IMG/VR virus record: IMGVR_UViG_3300002138_000044
Coordinates: 1-38,629 of that record
Source: a virus
Direction: 5' to 3' (one strand)
Length of the DNA: 38,629 bases
Under the pieces are notes generated by a model, which had not been told where the DNA came from, did no database searches, and saw nothing but the letters and a program-made list of their open reading frames with translations. The translations under genes were made by a program, and so were the position numbers. Positions within the stretch are counted from its first letter, which is position 1; every line of letters begins with the position of its first letter. Positions 10,677 to 37,053 of this stretch are shown here, piece by piece.

Positions 10677-11189
10677 ATGAGTTTATTATCACACGCTGAA
10701 GAAGAATTAAACAGAATTGGTATGGGCCCAGATTGCGACCCAGAAGATATGAATGGAATGATGCGAAAGCATATTCTTCATATGATGCAAGAGTTTGCAG
10801 ACGAAGGACACAGCGGTTTTTCTGCTTCGTATGCAATCAGTATTCTAACTAAACTAATGAGCTTTAAGCCATTATCACCACTCACAGGTGAAGATGATGA
10901 ATGGACAAATGTTTCTCATTATGGTAACGGCGATCCTCATTATCAAAATAAGCGACTTTCTTCAGTGTTTAAAGAAGAAGATGGTTCTTGTTACAATATT
11001 GATGGTAAAGTATTTTGGGAATGGTGCAAAGATGAAGCCGGCGATGCAGTTAAGTCTCATTATAGTAATCATGAATCAAGAATACCAGTGACTTTTCCCT
11101 ATACCGTACCAGATAAACCAATATATGAATATCGGCAATCTGAGGCTGAACCAAAATCGCTACCTCAAAATGAAGAAGGATTCCTTTAA
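10677..11189 (+). CDS. Conserved phage protein of unknown function
   Basis: 170 aa. AAGGA precedes the ATG. An N-terminal helical part (SHAEEELNRIGMGPDCDPED) is followed by PLTGEDDEW and a segment YQNKRLSSVFKEEDGSCYNI, features I associate with a widespread but uncharacterised phage protein family. No enzyme motif is visible. A 17-base piece of its 5' coding region (10691-10707) is repeated just after its own stop (11194-11210). Confidence 0.75.
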   Translation: MSLLSHAEEELNRIGMGPDCDPEDMNGMMRKHILHMMQEFADEGHSGFSASYAISILTKLMSFKPLSPLTGEDDEWTNVSHYGNGDPHYQNKRLSSVFKEEDGSCYNIDGKVFWEWCKDEAGDAVKSHYSNHESRIPVTFPYTVPDKPIYEYRQSEAEPKSLPQNEEGFL

Positions 11190-11213: not shown

Positions 11214-12035
11214 ATGATTCAACACATCGTAATCCCCACGCTTGGTCGTATGGACAAGCAAGTTACGTATAATAGCTTTCCACAGAAATATAAAGACATC
11301 ACAACTTTTGTAGTACAGGAGCATGAATATGCCGAAATGGACAAACGCTATCTAGGAAAAGTTCTCAGTCTACCAGCTGAGATTAATCGAATTGCTCCAA
11401 CTCGGGAATGGATTCACAAACATTTTAGAAATGATCGTCATTTTGTGTTTGATGATGATCTTGAGTTTGTCGTAAAAGAGCCTAATCTGGGTGAAGGCAC
11501 CAAGTGGCTGAGCCGTAAGTTTACTGACCATGACTTCGATGATGCATTCGATCTATGCGATGCGTGGATGGACGATGGTATCATCTACGGTGGATTCTTG
11601 CCTGCATGGATTATTCCCGACGTTAAGCAATGGCCAGTACGTGAATGCCAACGCATAATGACTAACGTATTCTACGATGGTGCTAAAGTTCCAGATGGTA
11701 TTGAATGGAATCGTGTTGCTGCAGCTGAAGACTTTGACGTCAACTTGCAACTACTGACTCGCGGATTTAAGAACAGAATTAGTGCTAAATACATGGTAAC
11801 CTGTTCTGAGACAAACGCTGAAGGTGGTTGTTCTACATGGCGCACGTTACAAGTTCATAATGATGCTCAAAAACAACTAGCTGAACTGTGGCCTGCCTTC
11901 ATTAAGCTAAGCGAGAAGACGGTTACTAACGGACCCTGGAAAGGGCAAGTTAAATATACGACGACGATTCAACATAAGAAGGCTTATATGTCGTCTCAAA
12001 AACCTACTCAAACTCTGGAGTCTTTCTTTGATTAA
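11214..12035 (+). CDS. GT-A fold glycosyltransferase, probably DNA-base modifying (TAGT-like)
   Basis: 273 aa. It begins MIQHIVIPTLGRMDKQVTYN, a nucleotide-sugar-binding strand, and has FVFDDDLEFVV with D80-D81-D82 as the metal site. A second acidic motif, AAEDFDVNLQLL (E172, D173), fits the GT-A acceptor region, and EGGCSTWRTLQVHND follows. The layout resembles the TET/JBP-associated glycosyltransferases (GREB1-like) that glucosylate hydroxymethylated bases. I infer that it glycosylates hydroxymethylcytosine in DNA because gene 42 lies nearby. T4 alpha/beta-glucosyltransferases are GT-B and unrelated. It overlaps the methyltransferase start by 8 bases. Base use is less AT-rich than the neighbours, suggesting later acquisition. 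Confidence 0.65.
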   Translation: MIQHIVIPTLGRMDKQVTYNSFPQKYKDITTFVVQEHEYAEMDKRYLGKVLSLPAEINRIAPTREWIHKHFRNDRHFVFDDDLEFVVKEPNLGEGTKWLSRKFTDHDFDDAFDLCDAWMDDGIIYGGFLPAWIIPDVKQWPVRECQRIMTNVFYDGAKVPDGIEWNRVAAAEDFDVNLQLLTRGFKNRISAKYMVTCSETNAEGGCSTWRTLQVHNDAQKQLAELWPAFIKLSEKTVTNGPWKGQVKYTTTIQHKKAYMSSQKPTQTLESFFD

Positions 12036-13212
12036 ACATGCAGCAATTGTTCCACTGGTCGGAGGTCTTCCTCTCGGCCAGGAAAAGGCATTCGGTAGTC
12101 GTCCTGACTACCTTTTGTCGTATTCGCCATTCTCCAGTAACGACTCACACTTAGTAAATTATTACAAAGACGTACCATACATTCTGCTTGATCAAGCCGG
12201 CCGCCATCCGCATTACGTAGATGTTGTTGGTGCTACATGTCCTTGTGCAGGTCTTTCTTCTCTATCGACATCAGCTAACTCTGACGCTGCTGTAAACGAT
12301 TGGATGACTACCACTGCCAAGTACGTACTAGAAGAAATGAAGCCTCAAGTATTTTGGGGTGAAAATGCTCCAAGACTTGCTGGTGAAATGGGTAAACCAG
12401 TTATTGCTAAATTAAATAAAATAGCAAAAGATAACGGCTATACAATATCACTTTATAGAACTAAGTCATTGCTGCATGGATTGAGTCAAGTGCGTGAACG
12501 CTCTTTCTACTTCTTTTGGAAGGGAAGTCAAGTCCCACTATTGAACTACTTTGATCGTCCAAACAAACGAATTGAAGATGCTATTCGTGAAGTGCCAAAG
12601 AATCTTACTCAACACGAAGTAACTAATAAGAAGATTCCATCTAAAGACGATCCGTATTATCGTTACGTGCTAGAAGAGTTAGAAGGTGGTATTACCCATC
12701 AAGAGTTCGTAAAGAGACTTACCAAGTCATGCGATGCTATGGATTGGATTGAGTCTAAAACTAATTATCTAGAAGTTAAGAAGTGGATGGAAGCATATGA
12801 TTATCCAAAGGTTGCTGCAAAGTGTCAAGCAATTGCTGAGAAGCTGGCTGATGGTGGTAATATTATGCGTAGGTCTTCTGTTATCCCTGCAAATTACATT
12901 GGTGCTTTTGTTGGACATCTACCAACCAATCTCACGCACCCCGACGAAGACCGTTACATCACTTATCGTGAGGGTATGAGTTTGATGGGTCTTCCATATG
13001 ACTTTGAGCTACTCAACCCAAGTAGAAACCTCAATCATATCTGCCAGAATGTTCCAGTAACTACTGCTACTGACATGGCAATGGAGATTAAAGCTGTTTT
13101 AGAAGGTAAAAGAGACATGATGAAGGGGACTTTAATGTATCAATTCAACCCTCAAAAGACTTTTGAAATAAGAGATGCAGATCCTCCCAATAGCTTACAA
13201 GCCTTCTTATGA
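12028..13212 (+). CDS. C5-cytosine DNA methyltransferase-like protein
   Basis: 394 aa, started by TTG at 12028 with GGAG 7 bases upstream; no ATG fits. Recognisable motifs: IV with the nucleophile in TCPCAGLSSLS (P72, C73), VI as WGENAP (E112, N113), VIII as QVRERSFYF (154-162), IX-like TYREGMSLMGLPYDF, and X-like ICQNVPVTTATDM. Motif I (IVPLVGGLPLGQEKAFG) is unusual: the Phe-x-Gly core and the acidic residue after it are not obvious. It is translated from within the glycosyltransferase gene, so the two should act together. If the genome already carries hydroxymethylcytosine, ordinary C5 methylation would be blocked, so the true target is uncertain. Confidence 0.75.
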   Translation: MIKHAAIVPLVGGLPLGQEKAFGSRPDYLLSYSPFSSNDSHLVNYYKDVPYILLDQAGRHPHYVDVVGATCPCAGLSSLSTSANSDAAVNDWMTTTAKYVLEEMKPQVFWGENAPRLAGEMGKPVIAKLNKIAKDNGYTISLYRTKSLLHGLSQVRERSFYFFWKGSQVPLLNYFDRPNKRIEDAIREVPKNLTQHEVTNKKIPSKDDPYYRYVLEELEGGITHQEFVKRLTKSCDAMDWIESKTNYLEVKKWMEAYDYPKVAAKCQAIAEKLADGGNIMRRSSVIPANYIGAFVGHLPTNLTHPDEDRYITYREGMSLMGLPYDFELLNPSRNLNHICQNVPVTTATDMAMEIKAVLEGKRDMMKGTLMYQFNPQKTFEIRDADPPNSLQAFL

Positions 13213-13277: not shown

Positions 13278-14081
13278 ATGGCTGCACAACAAGGGTTTTT
13301 ATATGAAGAAAACGCATATCATGCGTTACAAAGATATAAAATATCAACTGGTGGAGTTGCCGGCGCATCTCATGATAAACCAGACTTATCATTGGTAACT
13401 AAATCTATAAAAACTCCAGCTGGATGTGAATTAAAGATTTCTCCTACAGCAGCAGGCTCTTTAGTTATGAAGTATTATAAAGGTAAGTGGGACTATGGTG
13501 ATACTAAAGGCGATTCAGAAAAAGAACTAATGAAATCCATTGGTATCACATATAAGCTGTTGGATAATATGAATAAGTCTGGTACTGCTGGTAAAGATTG
13601 GCGTGATAAGATTCCAGTTCTACAAAATGACGCTAGTGGAAAGAAAGTACTAGCTTTAGGATTTACCGATAAAAGAAAAGCATATGCGCACGATATAAAG
13701 AATTTCGGTGGAACTAACGAAGTGCACATCGATGTTCCAGCAAAAGCTATATGTGATTACTATAATAAAAAGAAAACACAATATTTAAATGTTGGTACTC
13801 ACGGGTTTTTTCTGATGAACAAATCAGATCCTCTTAAATTAAATTCTAAACTCACTACTAAGATTCCAGACTTTGCGTCGTCTGCGTCTGCAAGAATTCG
13901 TATTAGATGCCAACCTAAGGGTGGCGGAGATTATCAATTTGTCATGACATTAGAGTTTAGTAAAGTCTCTAAGTCGCCATATAATCTTTGTCCAATCGAA
14001 TCTCCAACAAACGTTTCTATTAAGTTGTCTGAATATAAAACTCCAGCTAATATGCAGCTATTATTGGCTTTCTCACAATAA
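13278..14081 (+). CDS. PD-(D/E)XK nuclease-like protein under a late promoter
   Basis: 267 aa. The N-terminus carries a nuclease-like pattern: E11 in a first helix (GFLYEENAYHALQRY), D36 in DKPDLSLV and E51-L-K53 in GCELKISPT. The rest has a basic middle part and a beta-rich C-terminus (ARIRIRCQPKGGGDY, NVSIKLSEYKTP). I do not recognise the family by name. Late expression and position at the head of the capsid block suggest a head- or packaging-related nuclease, but this is inference. ACGGAA serves as a weak Shine-Dalgarno. Confidence 0.6.
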   Translation: MAAQQGFLYEENAYHALQRYKISTGGVAGASHDKPDLSLVTKSIKTPAGCELKISPTAAGSLVMKYYKGKWDYGDTKGDSEKELMKSIGITYKLLDNMNKSGTAGKDWRDKIPVLQNDASGKKVLALGFTDKRKAYAHDIKNFGGTNEVHIDVPAKAICDYYNKKKTQYLNVGTHGFFLMNKSDPLKLNSKLTTKIPDFASSASARIRIRCQPKGGGDYQFVMTLEFSKVSKSPYNLCPIESPTNVSIKLSEYKTPANMQLLLAFSQ

Positions 14082-14127: not shown

Positions 14128-14742
14128 ATGCTAAAATTTAAAGAATATTTGCTGGAAGAAGAAGGAAGCGGAAGCTTATCGATATTCGATATCGATGATA
14201 CTCTATTCCACACTACTGCTCAGATAGCAGTGATGCACAGCGGAAAAGTTCTGAAGAAACTAACTAATCAAGAATTTAATAATTATAAACTGAATCCAGG
14301 AGAATCATTTGATTTCGATGAATTCAAAGATGCTCATAAATTCTATCACGAATCAAAGCCTATAACTAAAATGCTTGCTAAGGCAAAAGCCATTTTAGCA
14401 AATTCGCAAAAGAACCCAAACAGCAAAGTAATTATCCTTACAGCTAGATCAAACTTTAATGATAAAGATAAGTTCCTAGCAACATTCCGCAAATACGGAT
14501 TTGATATTGATAAAGTATACGTTGAACGCGCAGGTGAATTAGTTGGTGATGAAGTTCCTGCAATTAAGAAAGCTATCATCATTACTAAATACTTAAATAC
14601 AAAACAATTTAGTAAAGTTAGATTATTCGACGATTCAATGAGTAATCTAAAAGAGTTCTTAAAGTTAAGAACAAAATTCAATCATGTGAAGTTTGAAGCA
14701 TATTTTGCTTTACCTAATGGATCAATTAAGACAATAAAATAA
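14128..14742 (+). CDS. HAD-family phosphatase with capsid-targeting-like N-terminus
   Basis: 204 aa. All four HAD motifs are present: DIDDT (D21, D23), ILTARS (T105), K147/K148, and LFDDS (D168, D169). HAD proteins of this phage type include the 3'-phosphatase domain of polynucleotide kinase, though the substrate here is not shown. The first residues MLKFKEYLLEEE resemble the T4 capsid-targeting peptide (MKTYQEFIAEA), which sends proteins into the prohead and is cut by gp21 after x-E. The stop overlaps the next ATG (TAATG), coupling it to the ligase-like gene. No strong ribosome site. Confidence 0.8.
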   Translation: MLKFKEYLLEEEGSGSLSIFDIDDTLFHTTAQIAVMHSGKVLKKLTNQEFNNYKLNPGESFDFDEFKDAHKFYHESKPITKMLAKAKAILANSQKNPNSKVIILTARSNFNDKDKFLATFRKYGFDIDKVYVERAGELVGDEVPAIKKAIIITKYLNTKQFSKVRLFDDSMSNLKEFLKLRTKFNHVKFEAYFALPNGSIKTIK

Positions 14743-15971
14743 TGTTAAACTTAAAAGAATATCTTAAAGAAGAAAAGAATACTCACATGGAGCACGTTGA
14801 AGATTTAGTCTTCAACGAAGGCGTAAACGGCACACGTAATGCAATTAATTTTTTACGTTCATTAAGAGATATGCTTGCGGGTAATACAAAATCTCCAATT
14901 ACCTCAACAGTAAAATGGGATGGAGCTCCAGCAATTTTTGCTGGTATTGACCCAAGTGATGGAAAGTTCTTCATTGCTAAAAAAGGTATTTTCAATAAAT
15001 CTCCAAAGATATATAAAACTCCAGCAGAAATTGATGCTGATACTAGCGGTGATCTTGCTGCAAAATTTAAAATAGCATTAAAAGAATTCTCTAAATTCGG
15101 AATTAAATCTGGTGTATATCAAGGTGATCTAATGTTCACCGATGATAAAGCTACGCTAGAAATAAACGGAGAAAAGTATATTACGTTTCATCCTAACACT
15201 ATTGTGTATGCAGTACCATACGATTCCATGCTTGGTAAAAAAATACGTGCTGCTAAAATTGGAGTTGTTTGGCATACTACGTATGAAGGCAAATCATTTG
15301 AGAATATGCAAGCATCCTTTGGTAAACCAATCGTAAATAAATTTAATACTTCATCTAGTGTATGGATGGACGACGCAAATTACAAAGACTATTCGGGTAC
15401 AGCTACTTTCACAGCAGAGGAAACAAAGAAAGTAACTGATGTGTTATCACGTGCTGGTGCTCTATTTAATTCAATCAGTGCTCAAACTCTTAATGGGATA
15501 AGCAACGATGAAGACTTATTGCTTGCGGTTAAAACCTTTAATAATACAAAAATTCGAAAGATGGAACAAATTAGTGATACTAGAGCCCACGTACGAGAAC
15601 TCTTCCACTACATCCACGAAAAATACCAAAAAGAAATCGAAAAGCGTAAAACGCCGACCGGCAAAAAAACACAAGAAGACTCCCGCACAAAAATCTTAAG
15701 CTTCTTTGCTCATCATGATCAAAACCAAATTGTAGCTATATTTGATTTAGTGAATTTGCTTGTTGAAGCTAAGAAAATGATTATAGAAAAAATGAACAAA
15801 GCTGGGCATATATCTACATTCTTAAAAACTAAAACCGGCTTTAAAACTACTGGCGTAGAAGGGTTTGTAGCAATCGATCATTTAAAGGGTGGAGCAGTTA
15901 AAATAGTAGATCGAATGGAATTTAGTTATGCAAACTTTTCACCAGAAATTCTTAAAGGATGGCAACGATGA
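14742..15971 (+). CDS. Ligase/capping-type nucleotidyltransferase-like protein
   Basis: 409 aa. I read covalent nucleotidyltransferase motifs: I as TVKWDGAPAI (K58-x-D60-G61), III-like GVYQGDLMF (124-132), IIIa-like HPNTIVYAVPYD, IV as EGFVAI (373-378) and V as AVKIV (386-390). These are the nucleotide-binding motifs of DNA/RNA ligases and capping enzymes. The C-terminal OB domain of DNA ligases is absent and a helical insert lies at about 240-340. A known phage family (DUF6267) seems to fit, from memory. N-terminus MLNLKEYLKEEK is capsid-targeting-like. Bases 15582-15702 switch to C-ending codons unlike the rest. Coupled to the HAD phosphatase, giving a possible end-healing/sealing pair. Confidence 0.65.
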   Translation: MLNLKEYLKEEKNTHMEHVEDLVFNEGVNGTRNAINFLRSLRDMLAGNTKSPITSTVKWDGAPAIFAGIDPSDGKFFIAKKGIFNKSPKIYKTPAEIDADTSGDLAAKFKIALKEFSKFGIKSGVYQGDLMFTDDKATLEINGEKYITFHPNTIVYAVPYDSMLGKKIRAAKIGVVWHTTYEGKSFENMQASFGKPIVNKFNTSSSVWMDDANYKDYSGTATFTAEETKKVTDVLSRAGALFNSISAQTLNGISNDEDLLLAVKTFNNTKIRKMEQISDTRAHVRELFHYIHEKYQKEIEKRKTPTGKKTQEDSRTKILSFFAHHDQNQIVAIFDLVNLLVEAKKMIIEKMNKAGHISTFLKTKTGFKTTGVEGFVAIDHLKGGAVKIVDRMEFSYANFSPEILKGWQR

Positions 15972-15993: not shown

Positions 15994-16614
15994 ATGAAAA
16001 CATTAAAGCAATATATTTTAGAGAATGAAGATCATAATCATCCTAAAAATTGGAAAGTAGAGAAGATGCATAGGGATGATACCTTTAATGGCAAAACGCG
16101 TTGGGATATTAAAGATAAAAGTGGAGAGATTATAGATTCTCATGAAACCTCGGCCGATGCTCATCATTATCTAAAAAATTGGCGCAAAAGATACACTGAT
16201 AGAATACTGCCAAAGAATACTGTCAAAGAATCTTTGATTATGGATAAGCCAATTCACACTAAGACAATTTCTGCTGATGAATTAATGAAACACATTGGTA
16301 GATCTAAAATAAAATCGATTGCTAAACATCCATTTCATCGAGAGTATGTTTCAGGCAGCCATTTGGGAAATGCAGGATATCAATATCATCGCGATTCACA
16401 TGGTTTTGAGCATGTTCTTGCTTCTCATACTGAACCATTGAAGGGAAAAGATGGAACTGAGAGAAGAAGAATGGTGAAATTTGATTTGTATAAGAATCAT
16501 GTAGACAACGCGCATCTATTTCATAATAAAAACAATGAACGTCACCATCCCGATGACGGCGGTAATCGTATCTGGCGCCATATAAAAAGTCATAAAGAGG
16601 AAAATGTTAGCTAA
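15994..16614 (+). CDS. Unknown protein with capsid-targeting-like N-terminus
   Basis: 206 aa, His- and Lys-rich, no recognised domain. It starts MKTLKQYILENED, very close to the T4 internal-protein leader MKTYQEFIAEA. The following part (WKVEKMHRDDTFNGKTRWDI, then DKSGEIIDSHETSADAHHYL) looks like a small beta/alpha module. The C-terminal half is basic with many histidines, fitting a DNA-contacting head protein. It lies 22 bases after the ligase-like gene. Confidence 0.7.
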   Translation: MKTLKQYILENEDHNHPKNWKVEKMHRDDTFNGKTRWDIKDKSGEIIDSHETSADAHHYLKNWRKRYTDRILPKNTVKESLIMDKPIHTKTISADELMKHIGRSKIKSIAKHPFHREYVSGSHLGNAGYQYHRDSHGFEHVLASHTEPLKGKDGTERRRMVKFDLYKNHVDNAHLFHNKNNERHHPDDGGNRIWRHIKSHKEENVS

Positions 16615-16663: not shown

Positions 16664-18220
16664 ATGAAACAATTTAGACAACTTATAAAAGAGTTGCCGT
16701 CAAAGAAAGTAGTATTTGCCTTCGGTCGTTTTCAACCGCCAACGACTGGCCATGAGCTATTGGTAAATGCTGTAAAAAAGATCGCTTCTTCTCAGAAAGC
16801 AGATCATATCATATTTGCTTCTCGTACTCACGATAAAAAAAGCAATCCACTTCCAGTAGATCGTAAAGTATATTATCTTAAACGAATGTTTCCAAAGACT
16901 AACTTCGTTGCAGCTAATGAAGAAATTAGAACGTTTATGGAAGCAGCAAAAGCGCTAAGTAAAAAGTATAAGAATCTTATAATGCTTGCTGGCTCTGATA
17001 GAGTTCCAGAATATAAAAAGCTACTCGAAAAATATAACGGAGATGTGTTTCATTTCGATACTATCGAAGTAATATCTGCTGGTGAAAGAGATCCAGATGC
17101 TGATAGTGCTTCTGGTATGTCGGGTACTAAAATGAGAGAGGCCGCTAAAAAGAATGATTTTACTTCTTTTAAAAGAGGTCTACCACACGTATTAACTGAA
17201 TTAGATGGTAAACGCCTGATGAATGAGATTCGTCAAGGCATGGGTATGGATGTAATTAAAGAACAGATTAAGTTCGAAACAAACAATGTTCGTGAAAAGT
17301 ATTTTGCTAATGAAATATTCCACGTAGATGATATCGTTGAATCTAATGGATGCGTTCTAAAAATAATTAAACGTGGCTCAAATCACTTATTAGTGGAAAA
17401 TGAATTGGGAGAAAAGATTAGCAAATTCCCACAAGATTTACAAGAATCTAAAAAAGAATTTAAAGGAATAAACGAAATGATCATCAAATCGCAAGATAAA
17501 CTAAAAGTTGCAAGAATTATTGCATCTTCACTTGGTACCGAAGATGTAGATGAAAAGAGCGGTGCTGAGCAGATGGTTAATCTTGCGCTGCGTAAAATCA
17601 AGAGCAAGAATTTAACTGCTGAAGGATGGAAGATTTTAGGCAACATGCTTAAACTTGCAACTGATGCAGGTATTAAATATGATTCATCTATAATTCCAGA
17701 AACTAAATTCAAATTGATGGGTTTAGCAGAAGATGCAGATGATCTATCTGATATCGATGATTCAGATATAGACGGCTTTATCGAGTCTTTAACTGAAGAC
17801 GATTATCTGGAAGTGTACGATGACGATGAACTTTCTATTGTTGATGTTGAGACTGGAGAGCATATTGAAGAACTTAAAGAAGAAGTTCTTGATGAAGTAT
17901 TATCTCGCGCAGAAAGAATTCGTTCTAAGTTAAGATTTTCAAGAACAGCTGCAAAGCGTGAACGTAGAACAGCTATTGCGCTTAAATCACATTCTAATAC
18001 TTCTACTATAAACAAAAGAGCACGTAGATTAGCTATTATAACTATGAAGAAACGTTTAGTTAAGAAACCTCTTAACACTTTATCAGTTTCTGAAAAAGAA
18101 AGAGTAGAGCGTATCATTGCACAACGCAAAAACGTTATTAATAGAATGGCTATGAAATTAGTACCTAATGTTAAAAGAATAGAAAACGATAGGCTTTCAC
18201 ATAAGAATTACACGAAATAA
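16664..18220 (+). CDS. Cytidylyltransferase-like (NMNAT/HIGH-type) enzyme with basic C-terminal domain
   Basis: 518 aa. Residues 16-190 are a nucleotidyltransferase domain: FGRFQPPTTGH (20-30; HIGH-like), LAGSDRV (108-114) and SGTKMR (153-158; ISSTxxR-like). This is the pattern of NMN adenylyltransferases and related enzymes, so NAD+ or a nucleotide-activated metabolite may be made. Middle residues (about 195-400) are acidic (DDLSDIDDSDIDGF). Residues 415-515 are strongly basic and helical (RSKLRFSRTAAKRERR), a tail I have seen in head-associated proteins of T4-like marine phages. N-terminus MKQFRQLIKELPS is capsid-targeting-like. A late-promoter-like GATAAATA (one mismatch) is at 16631-16638. 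Confidence 0.75.
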   Translation: MKQFRQLIKELPSKKVVFAFGRFQPPTTGHELLVNAVKKIASSQKADHIIFASRTHDKKSNPLPVDRKVYYLKRMFPKTNFVAANEEIRTFMEAAKALSKKYKNLIMLAGSDRVPEYKKLLEKYNGDVFHFDTIEVISAGERDPDADSASGMSGTKMREAAKKNDFTSFKRGLPHVLTELDGKRLMNEIRQGMGMDVIKEQIKFETNNVREKYFANEIFHVDDIVESNGCVLKIIKRGSNHLLVENELGEKISKFPQDLQESKKEFKGINEMIIKSQDKLKVARIIASSLGTEDVDEKSGAEQMVNLALRKIKSKNLTAEGWKILGNMLKLATDAGIKYDSSIIPETKFKLMGLAEDADDLSDIDDSDIDGFIESLTEDDYLEVYDDDELSIVDVETGEHIEELKEEVLDEVLSRAERIRSKLRFSRTAAKRERRTAIALKSHSNTSTINKRARRLAIITMKKRLVKKPLNTLSVSEKERVERIIAQRKNVINRMAMKLVPNVKRIENDRLSHKNYTK

Positions 18221-18229
18221 GAGAATATA

Positions 18230-18673
18230 ATGGATGAATTAATACTATCAATAAAAAAGTGTTTAGCTAATACTTTCGTATTTTATTTTAAAACACACGG
18301 CTTTCATTGGAATGTTGAAGGTATTAATTTTCCAACTTATCATGCTTTCTTCGAAGCTTTATACCAAGATCTTTATGGTGCAATAGATCCTCTTGCTGAA
18401 GAGATTCGAGCTTTAGATACATATGCTCCAAGTGGACTTAACGAATTATATAGTAATGCTTCTATTAGCGATAGCGATATTAAAGGCGATAATATAAAAG
18501 ATATGTTAGAAGCAGCTTTAAAAGATAACACGATAGTTGTTGGTTGTTTAACAACATCTCTTACGCTTGCTACTCGAGAAAATAAACAAGGGTTAGTAAA
18601 TTTCTTAGCCGATAGAATTGATGCTCATAAAAAGCATGAGTGGATGATTCGTTCTTGCATAAAGGGAGCATAA
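18230..18673 (+). CDS. dps: Dps-like miniferritin
   Basis: 147 aa. Dps proteins form 12-subunit shells that oxidise and store iron and protect DNA from peroxide. All ferroxidase ligands are present with exact family spacing: H26 (with W27 in GFHWNVEG), H38, D53 and E57 (DPLAEEIRAL), matching E. coli Dps H51, H63, D78, E82. There is no N-terminal lysine tail for DNA binding. It lies 9 bases after the cytidylyltransferase-like gene with AGAG as ribosome site, and its stop is 2 bases before the next ATG, inside the capsid-related block. Confidence 0.9.
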   Translation: MDELILSIKKCLANTFVFYFKTHGFHWNVEGINFPTYHAFFEALYQDLYGAIDPLAEEIRALDTYAPSGLNELYSNASISDSDIKGDNIKDMLEAALKDNTIVVGCLTTSLTLATRENKQGLVNFLADRIDAHKKHEWMIRSCIKGA

Positions 18674-21583: not shown

Positions 21584-22134
21584 TGTCAACGTTAGACAAT
21601 TTACTTGCATTTAGGATTCTTTATATGTTGGTTACTCCATTCGAGAAAACTGACGCGTATAAATTTGGAATCATCGATAAGGATGGTAAAGCGCTAAAAA
21701 AGACAAAAGATTTAAATACAAGCGAAGAAAAAGATTCATATACAAATCTTCATCGTCTTGTCTTTAATCTTAAAAAGCTATTGGCTAAAATACCAGGAGG
21801 CCAAAGTCAATTTGCTTCTCTTATTGCTGCGTACTGGTTGATAAAAGAAAACCAAACGCTTGCTCATAAACGCACAGTTATTCGTGAAGAAGAATTTACA
21901 TCTCTTATAGAATTAATTGAAGAAAAGAAATTGACATTGGTTGAAGAAGAAATACTAATAGAGAAATTTATTGCTATGATGGAAGATGGCGCAATTGCTA
22001 ATGTAACTGGAGCTAATACAGCTACCGATGAACCGGTTGTAAAATTAAAAAATAAAAAACCAGTTTCTGGAATTATTGGCAATAAACACTATATGTATCG
22101 TCGTAAAAAACTTGTACAAATGGGACAACAATGA
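21583..22134 (+). CDS. Conserved phage protein, unknown
   Basis: 183 aa, helical and Lys/Glu-rich, with the N-terminus LLAFRILYMLVTPFEKTDAY and a short basic C-terminus GNKHYMYRRKKLVQMG. The pattern LLAxRILxxLVTPFxxT seems familiar from T4-like marine phages, but the function is unknown. Its stop overlaps the next gene by ATGA (22131-22134), linking it to the capsid-targeted protein downstream. Confidence 0.7.
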   Translation: MSTLDNLLAFRILYMLVTPFEKTDAYKFGIIDKDGKALKKTKDLNTSEEKDSYTNLHRLVFNLKKLLAKIPGGQSQFASLIAAYWLIKENQTLAHKRTVIREEEFTSLIELIEEKKLTLVEEEILIEKFIAMMEDGAIANVTGANTATDEPVVKLKNKKPVSGIIGNKHYMYRRKKLVQMGQQ

Positions 22135-23210
22135 AAAATTTTAAAGAGTTTTCTGCATTAGAAGAATCAGACGCAGCCTGGGCAGCCTCTATGGAAAAGC
22201 AGAAAGAGAATCGTCTAACTGCTGGAGATAAAAAGAAGTTAGACCAAACACGTTCTTTGCTTGCTAAAGAAAAGAAACCAGTTAAAGAATCTTTTAGACC
22301 TATGGATGAACCAAAATACGATCAATCTATTCAAGCTCGTCAAAAGAAAGCTGATGATGCTAAAAAGAAACTAGACCAAACACGTGCTTTGCTTGCTAAA
22401 GAAAAGAAACCACTCTCTGAATCTCATGCTGAGTTAAGCAAACATATTTCTGATTTCTCTAAGGGTGTTAAGTCCTCATCAGCAAAACAAAGCACCTATA
22501 AAAGAGATGGTAAACCTATCTCCAACATGAAGCATATTGAGACTGATTCAGATCACCAAGCAGTATTTAAACATCTACAAAAGATGGGTTATAAAAAGAC
22601 TTCTGGTTACGATCCAAAGCCACATGAGTTTGATATGCATCACAATCGTGATGAGATGACATCAAAGAGTGATCCAGTCCACCATTCATCTGGTGTTTCT
22701 GCTCATGTGGAAAAAGAACATGGTAGTAAGATGAAGGTTCACTTCACTCATCGTGGTATCAAAGAACATGTTGAAGAGATTTTAGCACAAGATTATATCA
22801 CCACTGTTAGAGACTACCTTCAATCAAAAGAAGAATTAGGTGAAGCTCATAAGCTTGGCGATAAAGTCATTATCAATAAAGGACCATCTTATGTAGTTGG
22901 TAAAACTGGACATATTGGTGAGATCCGTAGGCACTATATTGGTGCTCCTAAAACTTATACTATTGATCATGATGATGGTTCCATACAATTAAAATCAACT
23001 CACTTTAAAGCAGTTAAAGCAGTTAAAGAAGAAGTTGAAGAGATAGATGAATTATCTTCTGATCTTTTAAAGCAATATAAAAAGAATGCCAGTGATGCTG
23101 CAACCGCAGCAGACAAAGCTGGTAAGTATGACATTGGTCATAAACGCTTTAAGGGTATATTAAAAGCAACTTTCAAACAGTTTGCTAATGACGCTAAGAA
23201 AAACGGGTAA
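22131..23210 (+). CDS. Capsid-targeting-like internal protein with tandem repeat and KOW-like segment
   Basis: 359 aa. The N-terminus MKNFKEFSALEES matches the capsid-targeting pattern. Residues 34-54 and 78-98 are near-identical repeats (core LDQTRSLLAKEKKP and LDQTRALLAKEKKP). A His-rich middle is followed at about 240-290 by GDKVIINKG, VGKTGHIGEIRR and YTIDHDDG, which look like a small SH3/KOW-type barrel. The C-terminal module EEVEEIDELSSDLLKQYKKN also occurs in the 18676 protein. Several x-E junctions (LSES, VKES) fit head-protease cleavage. Probable internal head or core protein. Confidence 0.65.
   Translation: MKNFKEFSALEESDAAWAASMEKQKENRLTAGDKKKLDQTRSLLAKEKKPVKESFRPMDEPKYDQSIQARQKKADDAKKKLDQTRALLAKEKKPLSESHAELSKHISDFSKGVKSSSAKQSTYKRDGKPISNMKHIETDSDHQAVFKHLQKMGYKKTSGYDPKPHEFDMHHNRDEMTSKSDPVHHSSGVSAHVEKEHGSKMKVHFTHRGIKEHVEEILAQDYITTVRDYLQSKEELGEAHKLGDKVIINKGPSYVVGKTGHIGEIRRHYIGAPKTYTIDHDDGSIQLKSTHFKAVKAVKEEVEEIDELSSDLLKQYKKNASDAATAADKAGKYDIGHKRFKGILKATFKQFANDAKKNG
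22230..22424 (+). repeat. Two-copy coding repeat (22230-22292 and 22362-22424)
   Basis: The 21-codon unit is repeated with a few base changes, for example shared TTGCTTGCTAAAGAAAAGAA. Each copy ends in a potential protease site (VKES, LSES). It lies within the gene at 22131. Confidence 0.85.
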
Positions 23211-35754: not shown

Positions 35755-37053
35755 ATGATTCTTAATATCTTGAAAGAACTAGAAGCAACTTCCTCTCGCC
35801 TTGAGAAGGAAGCGATTATCTTGCGTGAAAAAAATAACGCTCTTTTGAAGCGTGTTTACTTTCTTGCCTATGATCCATTCACTCAATTTTACCAGCGTAA
35901 AATTCCAGCATATACACCAGCACAGGCAAATCAAGCAGACTCGCTTGACGCAGTGCTTGATAGTTTGGCTATGTTATCTACACGGCAAGTTACGGGTAAT
36001 GCTGCGATCGAACATCTTACAAAACTCTTGAGTTCACTTGTTGAACATGATGCTCAAGTGATTGAACGCATCATTGGCAAAGATCTTAAGTGTGGTGCTT
36101 CAGACTCTACTGCTAATAAAATCTGGCCAAAGCTTATACATACATACCCATGTATGTTATGCACTCCGTTCGATGAGAAGCTTATCAGCAAGATGAAATT
36201 CCCAGCGTATGCTCAAATGAAAATGGACGGCATGCGTTTCAATGCAATTGTTCGCGCCGGCAAAGTAGAATTTCGTAGTCGTAATGGCAAAGAGATTCTA
36301 TTGCTTGGTAATCTTGAAAAAGAATTTGCTGCCTTGGCTGGCAAGATCGATTGTGTGTTTGATGGTGAACTTTTAGTAATGGACGAATTTGATTACCAAT
36401 TTCTCGATCGGCAATCAGGTAATGGCATTCTTAACAAAGCAAACAAAGGTACTATATCAGCCAAAGAAGCATCAATGGTTCATGCATCACTTTGGGATCT
36501 AATTCCCTATGAAGAATTTATCAGTGGGCGTTGTGTAACTCCATATTCAAAACGATTTTCTAGTCTTGAAGCAATTGTAAGTAAACAAAAACCTCAAGAT
36601 AAAAAGATATGGATTGTGTCAAGTGAAATTGTTCAGAACATCGAAGAAGCACAGGGCATTTTCCAGAATTATTTGTCTCTTGGCCATGAAGGTATTATTC
36701 TTAAAGACGGCAGTGGAGTCTGGGAAGATAAGCGTGTTAAGACTCAAATAAAATTCAAAGCCGAATTAGATTGTGATCTTCGTATTATTGATATTCAACC
36801 AGGAACTGGAAAATACACAGGGATGGTTGGAGCGTACATATGCGAAAGTGAAGACGGCGTTGTTAAAGTTGATGTTGGTTCTGGTTTAACAGACGAAGAG
36901 CGTACCAACTTTAATGTAATCGGAAAGATAGCAACTGTATTGTATAATGCTAGAATTAAAAATAAACAGGGTGAAGAATCTCTCTTTCTTCCGCGTCTAG
37001 TAGAAATTCGCGAAGATAAAGATGAAGCAGATTCATCGAAGAAAATTAAATAA
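35755..37053 (+). CDS. 30: ATP-dependent DNA ligase, T4 gp30 type
   Basis: 432 aa (T4 gp30 487). Motif I is MKMDGMRFN with the adenylated lysine near residue 156 (T4 K159). VEFRSRNGKEI is motif Ia/II, CVFDGELLVMD motif III, LGHEGIILKD motif IV, and KTQIKFKAE motif V. It seals Okazaki fragments and repairs nicks. GAGG precedes the ATG. Its stop TAA overlaps the next promoter element. Confidence 0.95.
   Translation: MILNILKELEATSSRLEKEAIILREKNNALLKRVYFLAYDPFTQFYQRKIPAYTPAQANQADSLDAVLDSLAMLSTRQVTGNAAIEHLTKLLSSLVEHDAQVIERIIGKDLKCGASDSTANKIWPKLIHTYPCMLCTPFDEKLISKMKFPAYAQMKMDGMRFNAIVRAGKVEFRSRNGKEILLLGNLEKEFAALAGKIDCVFDGELLVMDEFDYQFLDRQSGNGILNKANKGTISAKEASMVHASLWDLIPYEEFISGRCVTPYSKRFSSLEAIVSKQKPQDKKIWIVSSEIVQNIEEAQGIFQNYLSLGHEGIILKDGSGVWEDKRVKTQIKFKAELDCDLRIIDIQPGTGKYTGMVGAYICESEDGVVKVDVGSGLTDEERTNFNVIGKIATVLYNARIKNKQGEESLFLPRLVEIREDKDEADSSKKIK

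What the first reader, a model, noticed from the sequence alone, without database searches (positions are those of the whole stretch)
14128..15971. Coupled HAD phosphatase and ligase-like nucleotidyltransferase
The HAD gene overlaps the next start by one base, and the second protein has KWDG plus downstream ligase-type motifs but no OB domain. A 3'-phosphatase plus a nucleotidyltransferase is the core of end-healing and sealing in RNA or DNA repair (compare T4 Pnkp with Rnl1). The domain mix is different from T4 and both carry capsid-targeting-like leaders.
Basis: inference. Interest (0 to 1): 0.65.

Follow-up and report, generated by a model that had tools for sequence, protein, structure and literature searches.

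The report
Capsid-targeted ligase-fold enzyme with phosphatase partner
A T4-like aquatic phage appears to load into its capsid an unstudied enzyme with the fold of RNA and DNA ligases, together with a phosphatase and a second nucleotide-transferring enzyme, next to a fast-changing restriction-enzyme-like gene, so it may repair or reshape nucleic-acid ends at the moment of infection.

Summary
The two ORFs overlap by one base. The second protein has an invariant KxDG lysine (K58, 207 of 209 aligned ORFs), later motifs III, IV and V, and no OB domain. It is Pfam DUF6267, which no paper in the searched library names. Its predicted structure is nearest to RNA ligases (REL1, Naegleria Rnl, T4 Rnl2), at modest scores. 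The HAD protein is a true HAD phosphatase, weakly nearest to T4 polynucleotide kinase-phosphatase. The leaders match the T4 capsid-targeting register: in this window exactly four ORFs carry it, and they are consecutive (14128, 14742, 15994, 16664). Minus-strand ORFs match in 1 of 3233.

The "coupled pair" needs correcting. The HAD is immediately upstream in only 28 of 163 loci. The constant partner is a HIGH-type nucleotidyltransferase downstream (68 of 70 loci with room), sometimes fused, and published as a virion protein in cyanophages. The slot upstream of DUF6267 is hypervariable; the window's own endonuclease-like protein (13278-14081) models like HhaI.

Best reading: a capsid-delivered end-processing kit, with DUF6267 as the sealing enzyme. 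Ligation is unproven, and published cyanophage virion lists do not show DUF6267 itself, whose leader cyanophages lack.

The parts
14742..15971 (+). DUF6267 protein, 409 aa, predicted covalent nucleotidyltransferase (ligase superfamily)
   Evidence: Pfam PF19782 E 1.1e-104; AF2 model pLDDT 83.1, pTM 0.77; VIA-align top 11 rows RNA ligases, Z 7.5-8.0
14913..14924 (+). KWDG, motif I, K58 = predicted adenylylated lysine
   Evidence: K in 207 of 209 aligned ORFs
15120..15128 (+). QGD (residues 127-129), motif III-like
   Evidence: D129 in 208 of 209; strand 125-132 in model; motif name by inference
15414..15797 (+). all-helical insert, residues 225-352, between the motif III/IIIa strands and motif IV
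   Evidence: DSSP on model
15858..15863 (+). EG (373-374), motif IV
   Evidence: 199 of 199 ORFs that reach it
15900..15902 (+). K387, motif V
   Evidence: 199 of 199 ORFs that reach it
14128..14742 (+). HAD phosphatase, 204 aa
   Evidence: DxDxT, T, K, DD conserved in 31 homologues; phrog_415 polynucleotide kinase E 5.9e-7
14128..14157 (+). capsid-targeting leader MLKFKEYLLE of HAD
   Evidence: T4 IPIII register
14742..14771 (+). capsid-targeting leader MLNLKEYLKE of DUF6267
   Evidence: T4 IPIII register
15994..16614 (+). ORF206, unknown, leader MKTLKQYILE
   Evidence: leader in 4 of 4 homologues; no family match at its threshold
16664..18220 (+). HIGH-superfamily nucleotidyltransferase (cytidylyltransferase/NMNAT-like), leader MKQFRQLIKE, basic C-terminal tail
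   Evidence: phrog_3041 E 4.5e-69, phrog_395 E 1.6e-54; weak NadR NMN-adenylyltransferase match E 8.7e-5, below cut-off
13278..14081 (+). restriction-endonuclease-like protein, 267 aa, no leader
   Evidence: E10, D36, E51, K53 invariant in 18 of 18; model pLDDT 89.5; HhaI 6uke Z 10.6, rmsd 4.1, 183 aligned

Best explanation
The locus encodes capsid cargo for nucleic-acid end processing. DUF6267 is a covalent nucleotidyltransferase of the ligase superfamily: K58 takes AMP (possibly GMP) from a nucleotide, then transfers it to a 5'-phosphate end for sealing. The HAD protein removes a 3'-phosphate to make an end sealable. In this lineage both, with ORF206 and the HIGH nucleotidyltransferase, carry a T4-type leader that draws them into the prohead core; the gp21-type protease clips it after the (I/L)xE site, and the enzymes enter the cell with the DNA. 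They would then act before any phage gene is expressed, most likely on tRNA or genome ends broken by host nucleases. Shown by computation: reading frames, conservation, leader register, gene linkage, and (at modest scores) fold. From published work on relatives: the HIGH protein is in virions; T4 leaders direct packaging and injection. Inferred: adenylylation, sealing, substrate, and that these copies are really packaged.
For: Fold: VIA-align rows 1-11 are all RNA ligases (REL1 Z 8.0, rmsd 4.0, 194 residues; T4 Rnl2 1s68 Z 7.7, rmsd 4.1, 168), with Rnl1, Trl1 and human Lig1 below; Foldseek ranks 1-3 are DNA ligases and rank 5 REL1, weakly. Motifs I, III, IV, V invariant. HAD nearest to polynucleotide kinase-phosphatase (hhalign to T4 PseT E 0.0021 against 0.15-0.34 for five other T4 proteins). 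Leaders in T4 register: HAD 26/31, DUF6267 127/168, ORF206 4/4, HIGH 60/166 ORFs; Dps 0/38, C5 methylase 0/27, minus strand 1/3233. gp21-family protease in 19 of 19 records tested. HIGH protein in virions of S-SM1 (PMC3037559), S-CREM2 (PMC10665884), S-SZBM1 (PMC9146016). DUF6267 phages mostly lack T4-type RNA ligases: Rnl1 family in 2 of 18, Rnl2 family in 2 of 18. The window has its own T4-type DNA ligase at 35755-37053, so DUF6267 is unlikely to be the replicative ligase.
Against: VIA-align Z near 8 lies in the range that the tool warns can be a common arrangement, and DnaK lid helices score 7.4 in the same list. No Foldseek PDB match under E 0.001. hhalign to T4 Rnl1, Rnl2 and gp30 is no better than to unrelated T4 proteins. 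DUF6267 is absent, by length and gene order, from the 30 virion proteins of S-SZBM1, and S-CREM2 gp87, at the place of its DUF6267 match, is not among the hypothetical virion proteins I saw listed; those cyanophage copies have no leader. Two of 18 DUF6267 records also carry Rnl1 and Rnl2 family ligases, so it is not a strict replacement. A kinase, needed for the full T4-like healing pathway, was not recognised beside the pair in this window.
Confidence: 0.45

Rival explanations
1. Conflict cassette: the hypervariable upstream protein is a restriction-type nuclease aimed at host or rival-phage DNA, and DUF6267 seals or protects the phage's own nicked DNA. The end-sealing is then DNA-directed and paired with attack, not with tRNA rescue.
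For: Window 13278-14081 models like HhaI (Z 10.6) with invariant E10/D36/E51/K53. Upstream ORFs fall in 37 clusters over 163 loci; 11 of 25 cluster representatives of at least 150 aa show a D...(E/S)xK motif against 91 of 732 other ORFs and 15% of shuffles, Fisher p 1.4e-4. 93 of 163 upstream ORFs overlap the DUF6267 start.
Against: The regex was written after seeing the sequences. Only one of the 37 clusters was tested by structure. Some slots hold HAD, kinase or tail-like proteins. The window's own endonuclease-like protein carries no leader and is separated from DUF6267 by the HAD gene.
Confidence: 0.2
2. NAD+-centred cassette: the HIGH enzyme (NMNAT/NadR-like) with the occasional kinase rebuilds NAD+ after host NADase defence, and DUF6267 is an NAD+- or nucleotide-using partner rather than a polynucleotide ligase.
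For: HIGH found downstream in 68 of 70 loci with 5 kb room; DUF6267-HIGH fusions (phrog_455; S-PM2 591-aa protein); weak NadR match; kinase fused to HIGH in L094, L128 and L135; a protein of the Thoeris-inhibitor family Tad3 encoded about 4 kb upstream; PMC9602691 and PMC10665884 propose an NAD+ role for virion NMNAT-like proteins (passages).
Against: The NadR match is far below NCBIfam's cut-off (21.9 against 341 bits). Tad3 was recognised in the window only, 1 of 168 loci. Nothing in the fold search points to NAD+ chemistry for DUF6267 beyond generic ligases.
Confidence: 0.15
3. Repurposed nucleotidyltransferase: DUF6267 attaches a nucleotide to RNA 5' ends, a protein or a small molecule (capping or AMPylation-like), with no sealing.
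For: No OB or other known C-terminal ligase domain; large helical insert 225-352 of unknown role; conserved N-terminal HxxHxED motif; no sequence-level relation to T4 ligases found.
Against: Nearest folds are sealing enzymes; motifs III-V all kept.
Confidence: 0.15

Closest known systems
T4 Pnkp (PseT) plus Rnl1 (tRNA repair)
   Same: HAD-type 3'-phosphatase and a KxDG nucleotidyltransferase in one phage; T4 PseT is the HAD protein's best relative among six T4 proteins compared
   Different: No kinase recognised beside the pair here; separate leader-bearing proteins; DUF6267 not recognisably related in sequence to Rnl1; T4 makes its kit after infection (recalled)
Rnl2/REL1-type RNA ligases
   Same: Best structural neighbours
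   Different: No Rnl2 C-terminal domain; 128-residue helical insert; PF09414 does not match DUF6267
T4 internal proteins IPI-IPIII and Alt
   Same: Leader in the same ten-residue register as IPII and IPIII; T4 internal proteins are packaged and injected (PMC9026906, PMC12373910, passages)
   Different: Cargo here is of a nucleic-acid end-processing type, not a restriction inhibitor or ADP-ribosyltransferase
Cyanophage T4-GC190 cytidylyltransferase, a virion protein
   Same: HIGH-type enzyme next to DUF6267
   Different: Cyanophage DUF6267 (T4-GC71) has no leader and is not in the virion lists I saw
HhaI restriction endonuclease
   Same: Structural match to 13278-14081
   Different: 12% identity; no restriction-enzyme family match by sequence; cleavage untested

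Membership tests
Covalent nucleotidyltransferase (ligase) superfamily | Motif I KxDG lysine, conserved | tested here: met
   K58 in 207 of 209
Covalent nucleotidyltransferase (ligase) superfamily | Motifs III, IV and V in order | tested here: met
   D129 208 of 209; E373, G374, K387 in 199 of 199 present; motif III has D where ligases usually have E (recalled)
Covalent nucleotidyltransferase (ligase) superfamily | Nucleotidyltransferase fold | tested here: inconclusive
   Top rows all ligases but Z only 8.0 and no Foldseek PDB match under 0.001
Covalent nucleotidyltransferase (ligase) superfamily | Auto-adenylylation | not testable with these tools
   needs protein
Rnl1 / Rnl2 RNA ligase families | Sequence match to PF09511 or PF09414 | tested here: not met
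   Pfam scan of the protein gives neither; genome searches with both do not hit DUF6267 places
HAD phosphatase superfamily | DxDxT, T/S, K, DD motifs | tested here: met
   conserved in at least 95% of 31
Pnkp-type 3'-phosphatase | Relation to the T4 PseT phosphatase domain | tested here: inconclusive
   phrog_415 E 5.9e-7; hhalign E 0.0021, phmmer and hmmsearch none; activity untested
T4-type capsid-targeted (internal) proteins | 10-residue leader in IPIII register | tested here: met
   window: 4 consecutive ORFs and no others
T4-type capsid-targeted (internal) proteins | gp21-type protease in the phage | tested here: met
   19 of 19 relatives' records incl. T4; the window itself is a 38.6-kb fragment and was not in that test
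T4-type capsid-targeted (internal) proteins | Presence in virions | not testable with these tools
   published for HIGH homologues only
PD-(D/E)xK restriction-endonuclease-like fold (13278-14081) | E, D, ExK active site on the core fold | tested here: met
   18 of 18; HhaI Z 10.6, though Foldseek alone found no PDB match under 0.001

The most novel reading that the evidence does not exclude
A capsid-delivered nuclease-and-sealing system. T4-like phages of aquatic bacteria carry a conserved ligase-fold enzyme (DUF6267), constantly linked to a packaged HIGH nucleotidyltransferase, with a translationally coupled, hypervariable upstream slot that cycles through unrelated restriction-endonuclease-like proteins, HAD phosphatases and kinases, many with their own capsid leaders. 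The injected set would cut, heal and seal nucleic acids as the genome enters, as a preassembled attack and counter-defence module.
Probability: 0.22. Interest if true: 0.85.

Novelty: new variant of a known kind. Interest (0 to 1): 0.6.

Why it matters
DUF6267 occurs in 467 of 50,697 annotated phage records, mostly cyanophages, and the library held no paper naming it. Giving it a likely fold and a catalytic lysine turns an unnamed gene of abundant marine and freshwater phages into something that can be assayed directly. If it is packaged in the leader-bearing lineage, RNA or DNA repair would begin before any phage gene is read, which would bear on what T4-like phages outside the coliphages do against host nucleases and why they carry nucleotidyltransferases in the virion. 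The hypervariable slot beside it is a ready place to look for phage-phage and phage-host arms races.

Tried and rejected
Sequence search for a solved relative: phmmer with each of the two proteins and hmmsearch with the 12-row DUF6267 profile gave only chance matches. hhalign of the DUF6267 profile to single T4 proteins Rnl1, Rnl2 and gp30 gave E 0.13-0.64; the eight proteins marked as controls gave 0.043-0.87, so no support. Foldseek on the endonuclease-like model gave no PDB match under 0.001 and a top list of unrelated proteins; the HhaI relation rests on VIA-align and the invariant residues. Pfam scan of ten upstream proteins found no known nuclease family. PADLOC found nothing for seven proteins. 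The idea that the HAD-ligase pair is the conserved unit was dropped after counting neighbours. The idea that DUF6267 is a cellular gene was dropped: the 38 genome-contig loci are nearly all in MAG, single-cell or draft contigs and I read them as phage contigs, without examining each. The kinase of HTVC008M, first taken for a polynucleotide kinase (phrog_505 E 8.5e-8), matches L-seryl-tRNA(Sec) kinase better among NCBIfam models (E 2.5e-10, far under cut-off), so it is not used as proof of a complete healing pathway. My first leader pattern was shaped on these sequences and hit 9 of 118 T4 ORFs in one region; the count used is the T4-derived register. Not in print: DUF6267 by one search; capsid targeting with cyanophage by one search, which gave one T4 review. 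Papers: I saw passages of PMC10665884, PMC9602691, PMC9964418, PMC9026906, PMC12373910, PMC9503650, PMC3037559, PMC7824862, PMC9004378, PMC7029224 and PMC5349666, and passages plus the full tables section of PMC9146016; others only as search listings.

Full report
What is there. The window is a 38,629-base virus record with T4-type replication genes: polymerase, UvsX and helicase, ribonucleotide reductase, and its own ATP-dependent DNA ligase at 35755-37053. In the middle lie, all on +, an endonuclease-like gene (13278-14081), the HAD gene (14128-14742), DUF6267 (14742-15971), ORF206 (15994-16614) and a HIGH nucleotidyltransferase (16664-18220). The HAD stop and DUF6267 start share one base.

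The second protein. It matches Pfam DUF6267 over its length (E 1.1e-104). By tblastn 467 of 50,697 phage records carry it, 367 of them Synechococcus phages. K58, D60, G61, D129, E373, G374 and K387 are essentially invariant across 209 ORFs from 208 loci. AlphaFold2 on a 60-row alignment gives pLDDT 83.1 and pTM 0.77, with a helical block at 225-352 between the motif III strands and motif IV, and no domain after motif V. VIA-align ranks RNA ligases in rows 1 to 11 and many more ligases below (REL1 Z 8.0, rmsd 4.0, 194 aligned; T4 Rnl2 Z 7.7, rmsd 4.1, 168), but rows of DnaK lid helices reach 7.4 on about 72 residues. Foldseek agrees in direction only, with DNA ligases at ranks 1-3 and REL1 at 5, E 0.04-0.4. 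Against viral models the best match is a 591-residue S-PM2 protein named for its cytidyltransferase domain, so DUF6267 and the HIGH enzyme are fused there (E 1.3e-31). I take the ligase-superfamily assignment as likely (about 0.85), and sealing as the activity as less sure.

The HAD protein. All HAD catalytic positions are kept in 31 homologues. phrog_415, polynucleotide kinase, matches at 5.9e-7, and hhalign prefers T4 PseT (E 0.0021) to five other T4 proteins (0.15-0.34). Pfam HAD_SAK_1 of RNA-repair proteins is only 0.036 and under its cut-off.

Neighbours. Over 168 loci (the window counted twice, as itself and as L089), the window's proteins recur so: HIGH 134, Dps 37, HAD 31, C5 methylase 27, ORF656 25, endonuclease-like 20, ORF206 4, TAGT 4, Tad3 1. 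Many loci are short; of 70 with at least 5 kb downstream, 68 have HIGH. The ORF just upstream was found in 163 of 168 loci and falls in 37 single-linkage clusters; the largest (42) is itself very divergent (17% mean column identity for 22 of its 42 members aligned), the HAD cluster has 28, and 93 of 163 overlap the DUF6267 start. All 28 HAD genes overlap it by 1 or 4 bases.

The endonuclease-like neighbour. In 18 aligned sequences E10, D36, E51 and K53 are invariant although some share only 19% identity with the window protein. The model (pLDDT 89.5) matches HhaI at Z 10.6, rmsd 4.1, 183 residues, clearly above the next rows, which are also nuclease domains. For the other clusters I have only a motif count, 11 of 25 representatives against 91 of 732 control ORFs, with a pattern written after looking.

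Capsid targeting. T4 IPII and IPIII begin MKTYQEFIAE. PMC9026906 (passages) says residues 4 and 7 matter most for targeting and 8 and 10 for processing. Using M, [FYL]4, [FYL]7, [ILV]8, E10 as a fixed test: HAD 26 of 31, DUF6267 127 of 168, ORF206 4 of 4, HIGH 60 of 166 ORFs, upstream slot 56 of 163, other + ORFs of 80 aa or more 109 of 1547; Dps 0 of 38, methylase 0 of 27, endonuclease-like 0 of 20, minus strand 1 of 3233. In the window the four positives are consecutive genes and no other ORF matches. A gp21-family protease was found in 19 of 19 records. In the cyanophages read, DUF6267 starts straight at its HLEHLED motif with no leader.

Virion data in print. The HIGH homologue was detected in S-SM1 virions (T4-GC190, PMC3037559), S-CREM2 (three unique peptides, PMC10665884) and S-SZBM1 (PMC9146016, Table 1). 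In S-SZBM1 the HIGH gene is directly downstream of DUF6267, and by length Table 1 lists it and the next gene but not DUF6267. S-CREM2 gp87, which lies at its DUF6267 match, is not among the hypothetical virion proteins listed. So packaging is shown for a neighbour in relatives whose DUF6267 lacks a leader, and predicted, not shown, for DUF6267 in leader-bearing phages.

How it works, and what it is. In 18 DUF6267 records, Rnl1-type and Rnl2-type ligases were each found in 2, which fits DUF6267 as the sealing enzyme in most of these phages but is not proof. I file it as a new variant of a known kind: ligase-superfamily member by motifs, probably by fold; not a member of the Rnl1 or Rnl2 families; T4-type internal protein by leader only.

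Noticed in passing
window 10677-11189: Match to Tad3, a type I Thoeris inhibitor family (PF25185 E 6.1e-40), recognised in no other of the loci compared.
   Followed up: no
window 11214-13212: TET-associated glycosyltransferase (TAGT, E 8.3e-19) next to a C5 cytosine methylase: the phage DNA may carry a glycosylated modified cytosine, which would protect it from a phage-made restriction-type nuclease.
   Followed up: no
window 22131-23210: Leader-like start MKNFKEFSALEE (loose pattern only); it and the endonuclease-like protein at 13278 match different parts of one family, phrog_26930, which suggests a fusion of the two elsewhere.
   Followed up: no
L084 7736-8398 (HTVC008M gp129); L112, L121, L125, L146: P-loop kinase near DUF6267, some copies with capsid-type leaders, fused to the HIGH enzyme in L094, L128 and L135; nearest NCBIfam model is L-seryl-tRNA(Sec) kinase, under cut-off.
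   Followed up: partly
L085 5992-7771 (S-PM2 NC_006820): DUF6267 is split over two annotated genes here, while another S-PM2 entry gives one 591-residue fusion protein.
   Followed up: no
L103 1481-2707: A stop codon lies inside the DUF6267 frame.
   Followed up: no
window 17900-18220; L081 9254-9625: The HIGH protein ends in a very basic RRARR-type tail that in C48C1 looks like a separate small leader-bearing protein: a possible DNA-binding cargo module.
   Followed up: no
window 18230-18673: Dps/ferritin-like gene (PF00210 E 1.9e-22) near the cassette in 37 of 168 loci, with no leader in any of 38 ORFs.
   Followed up: no
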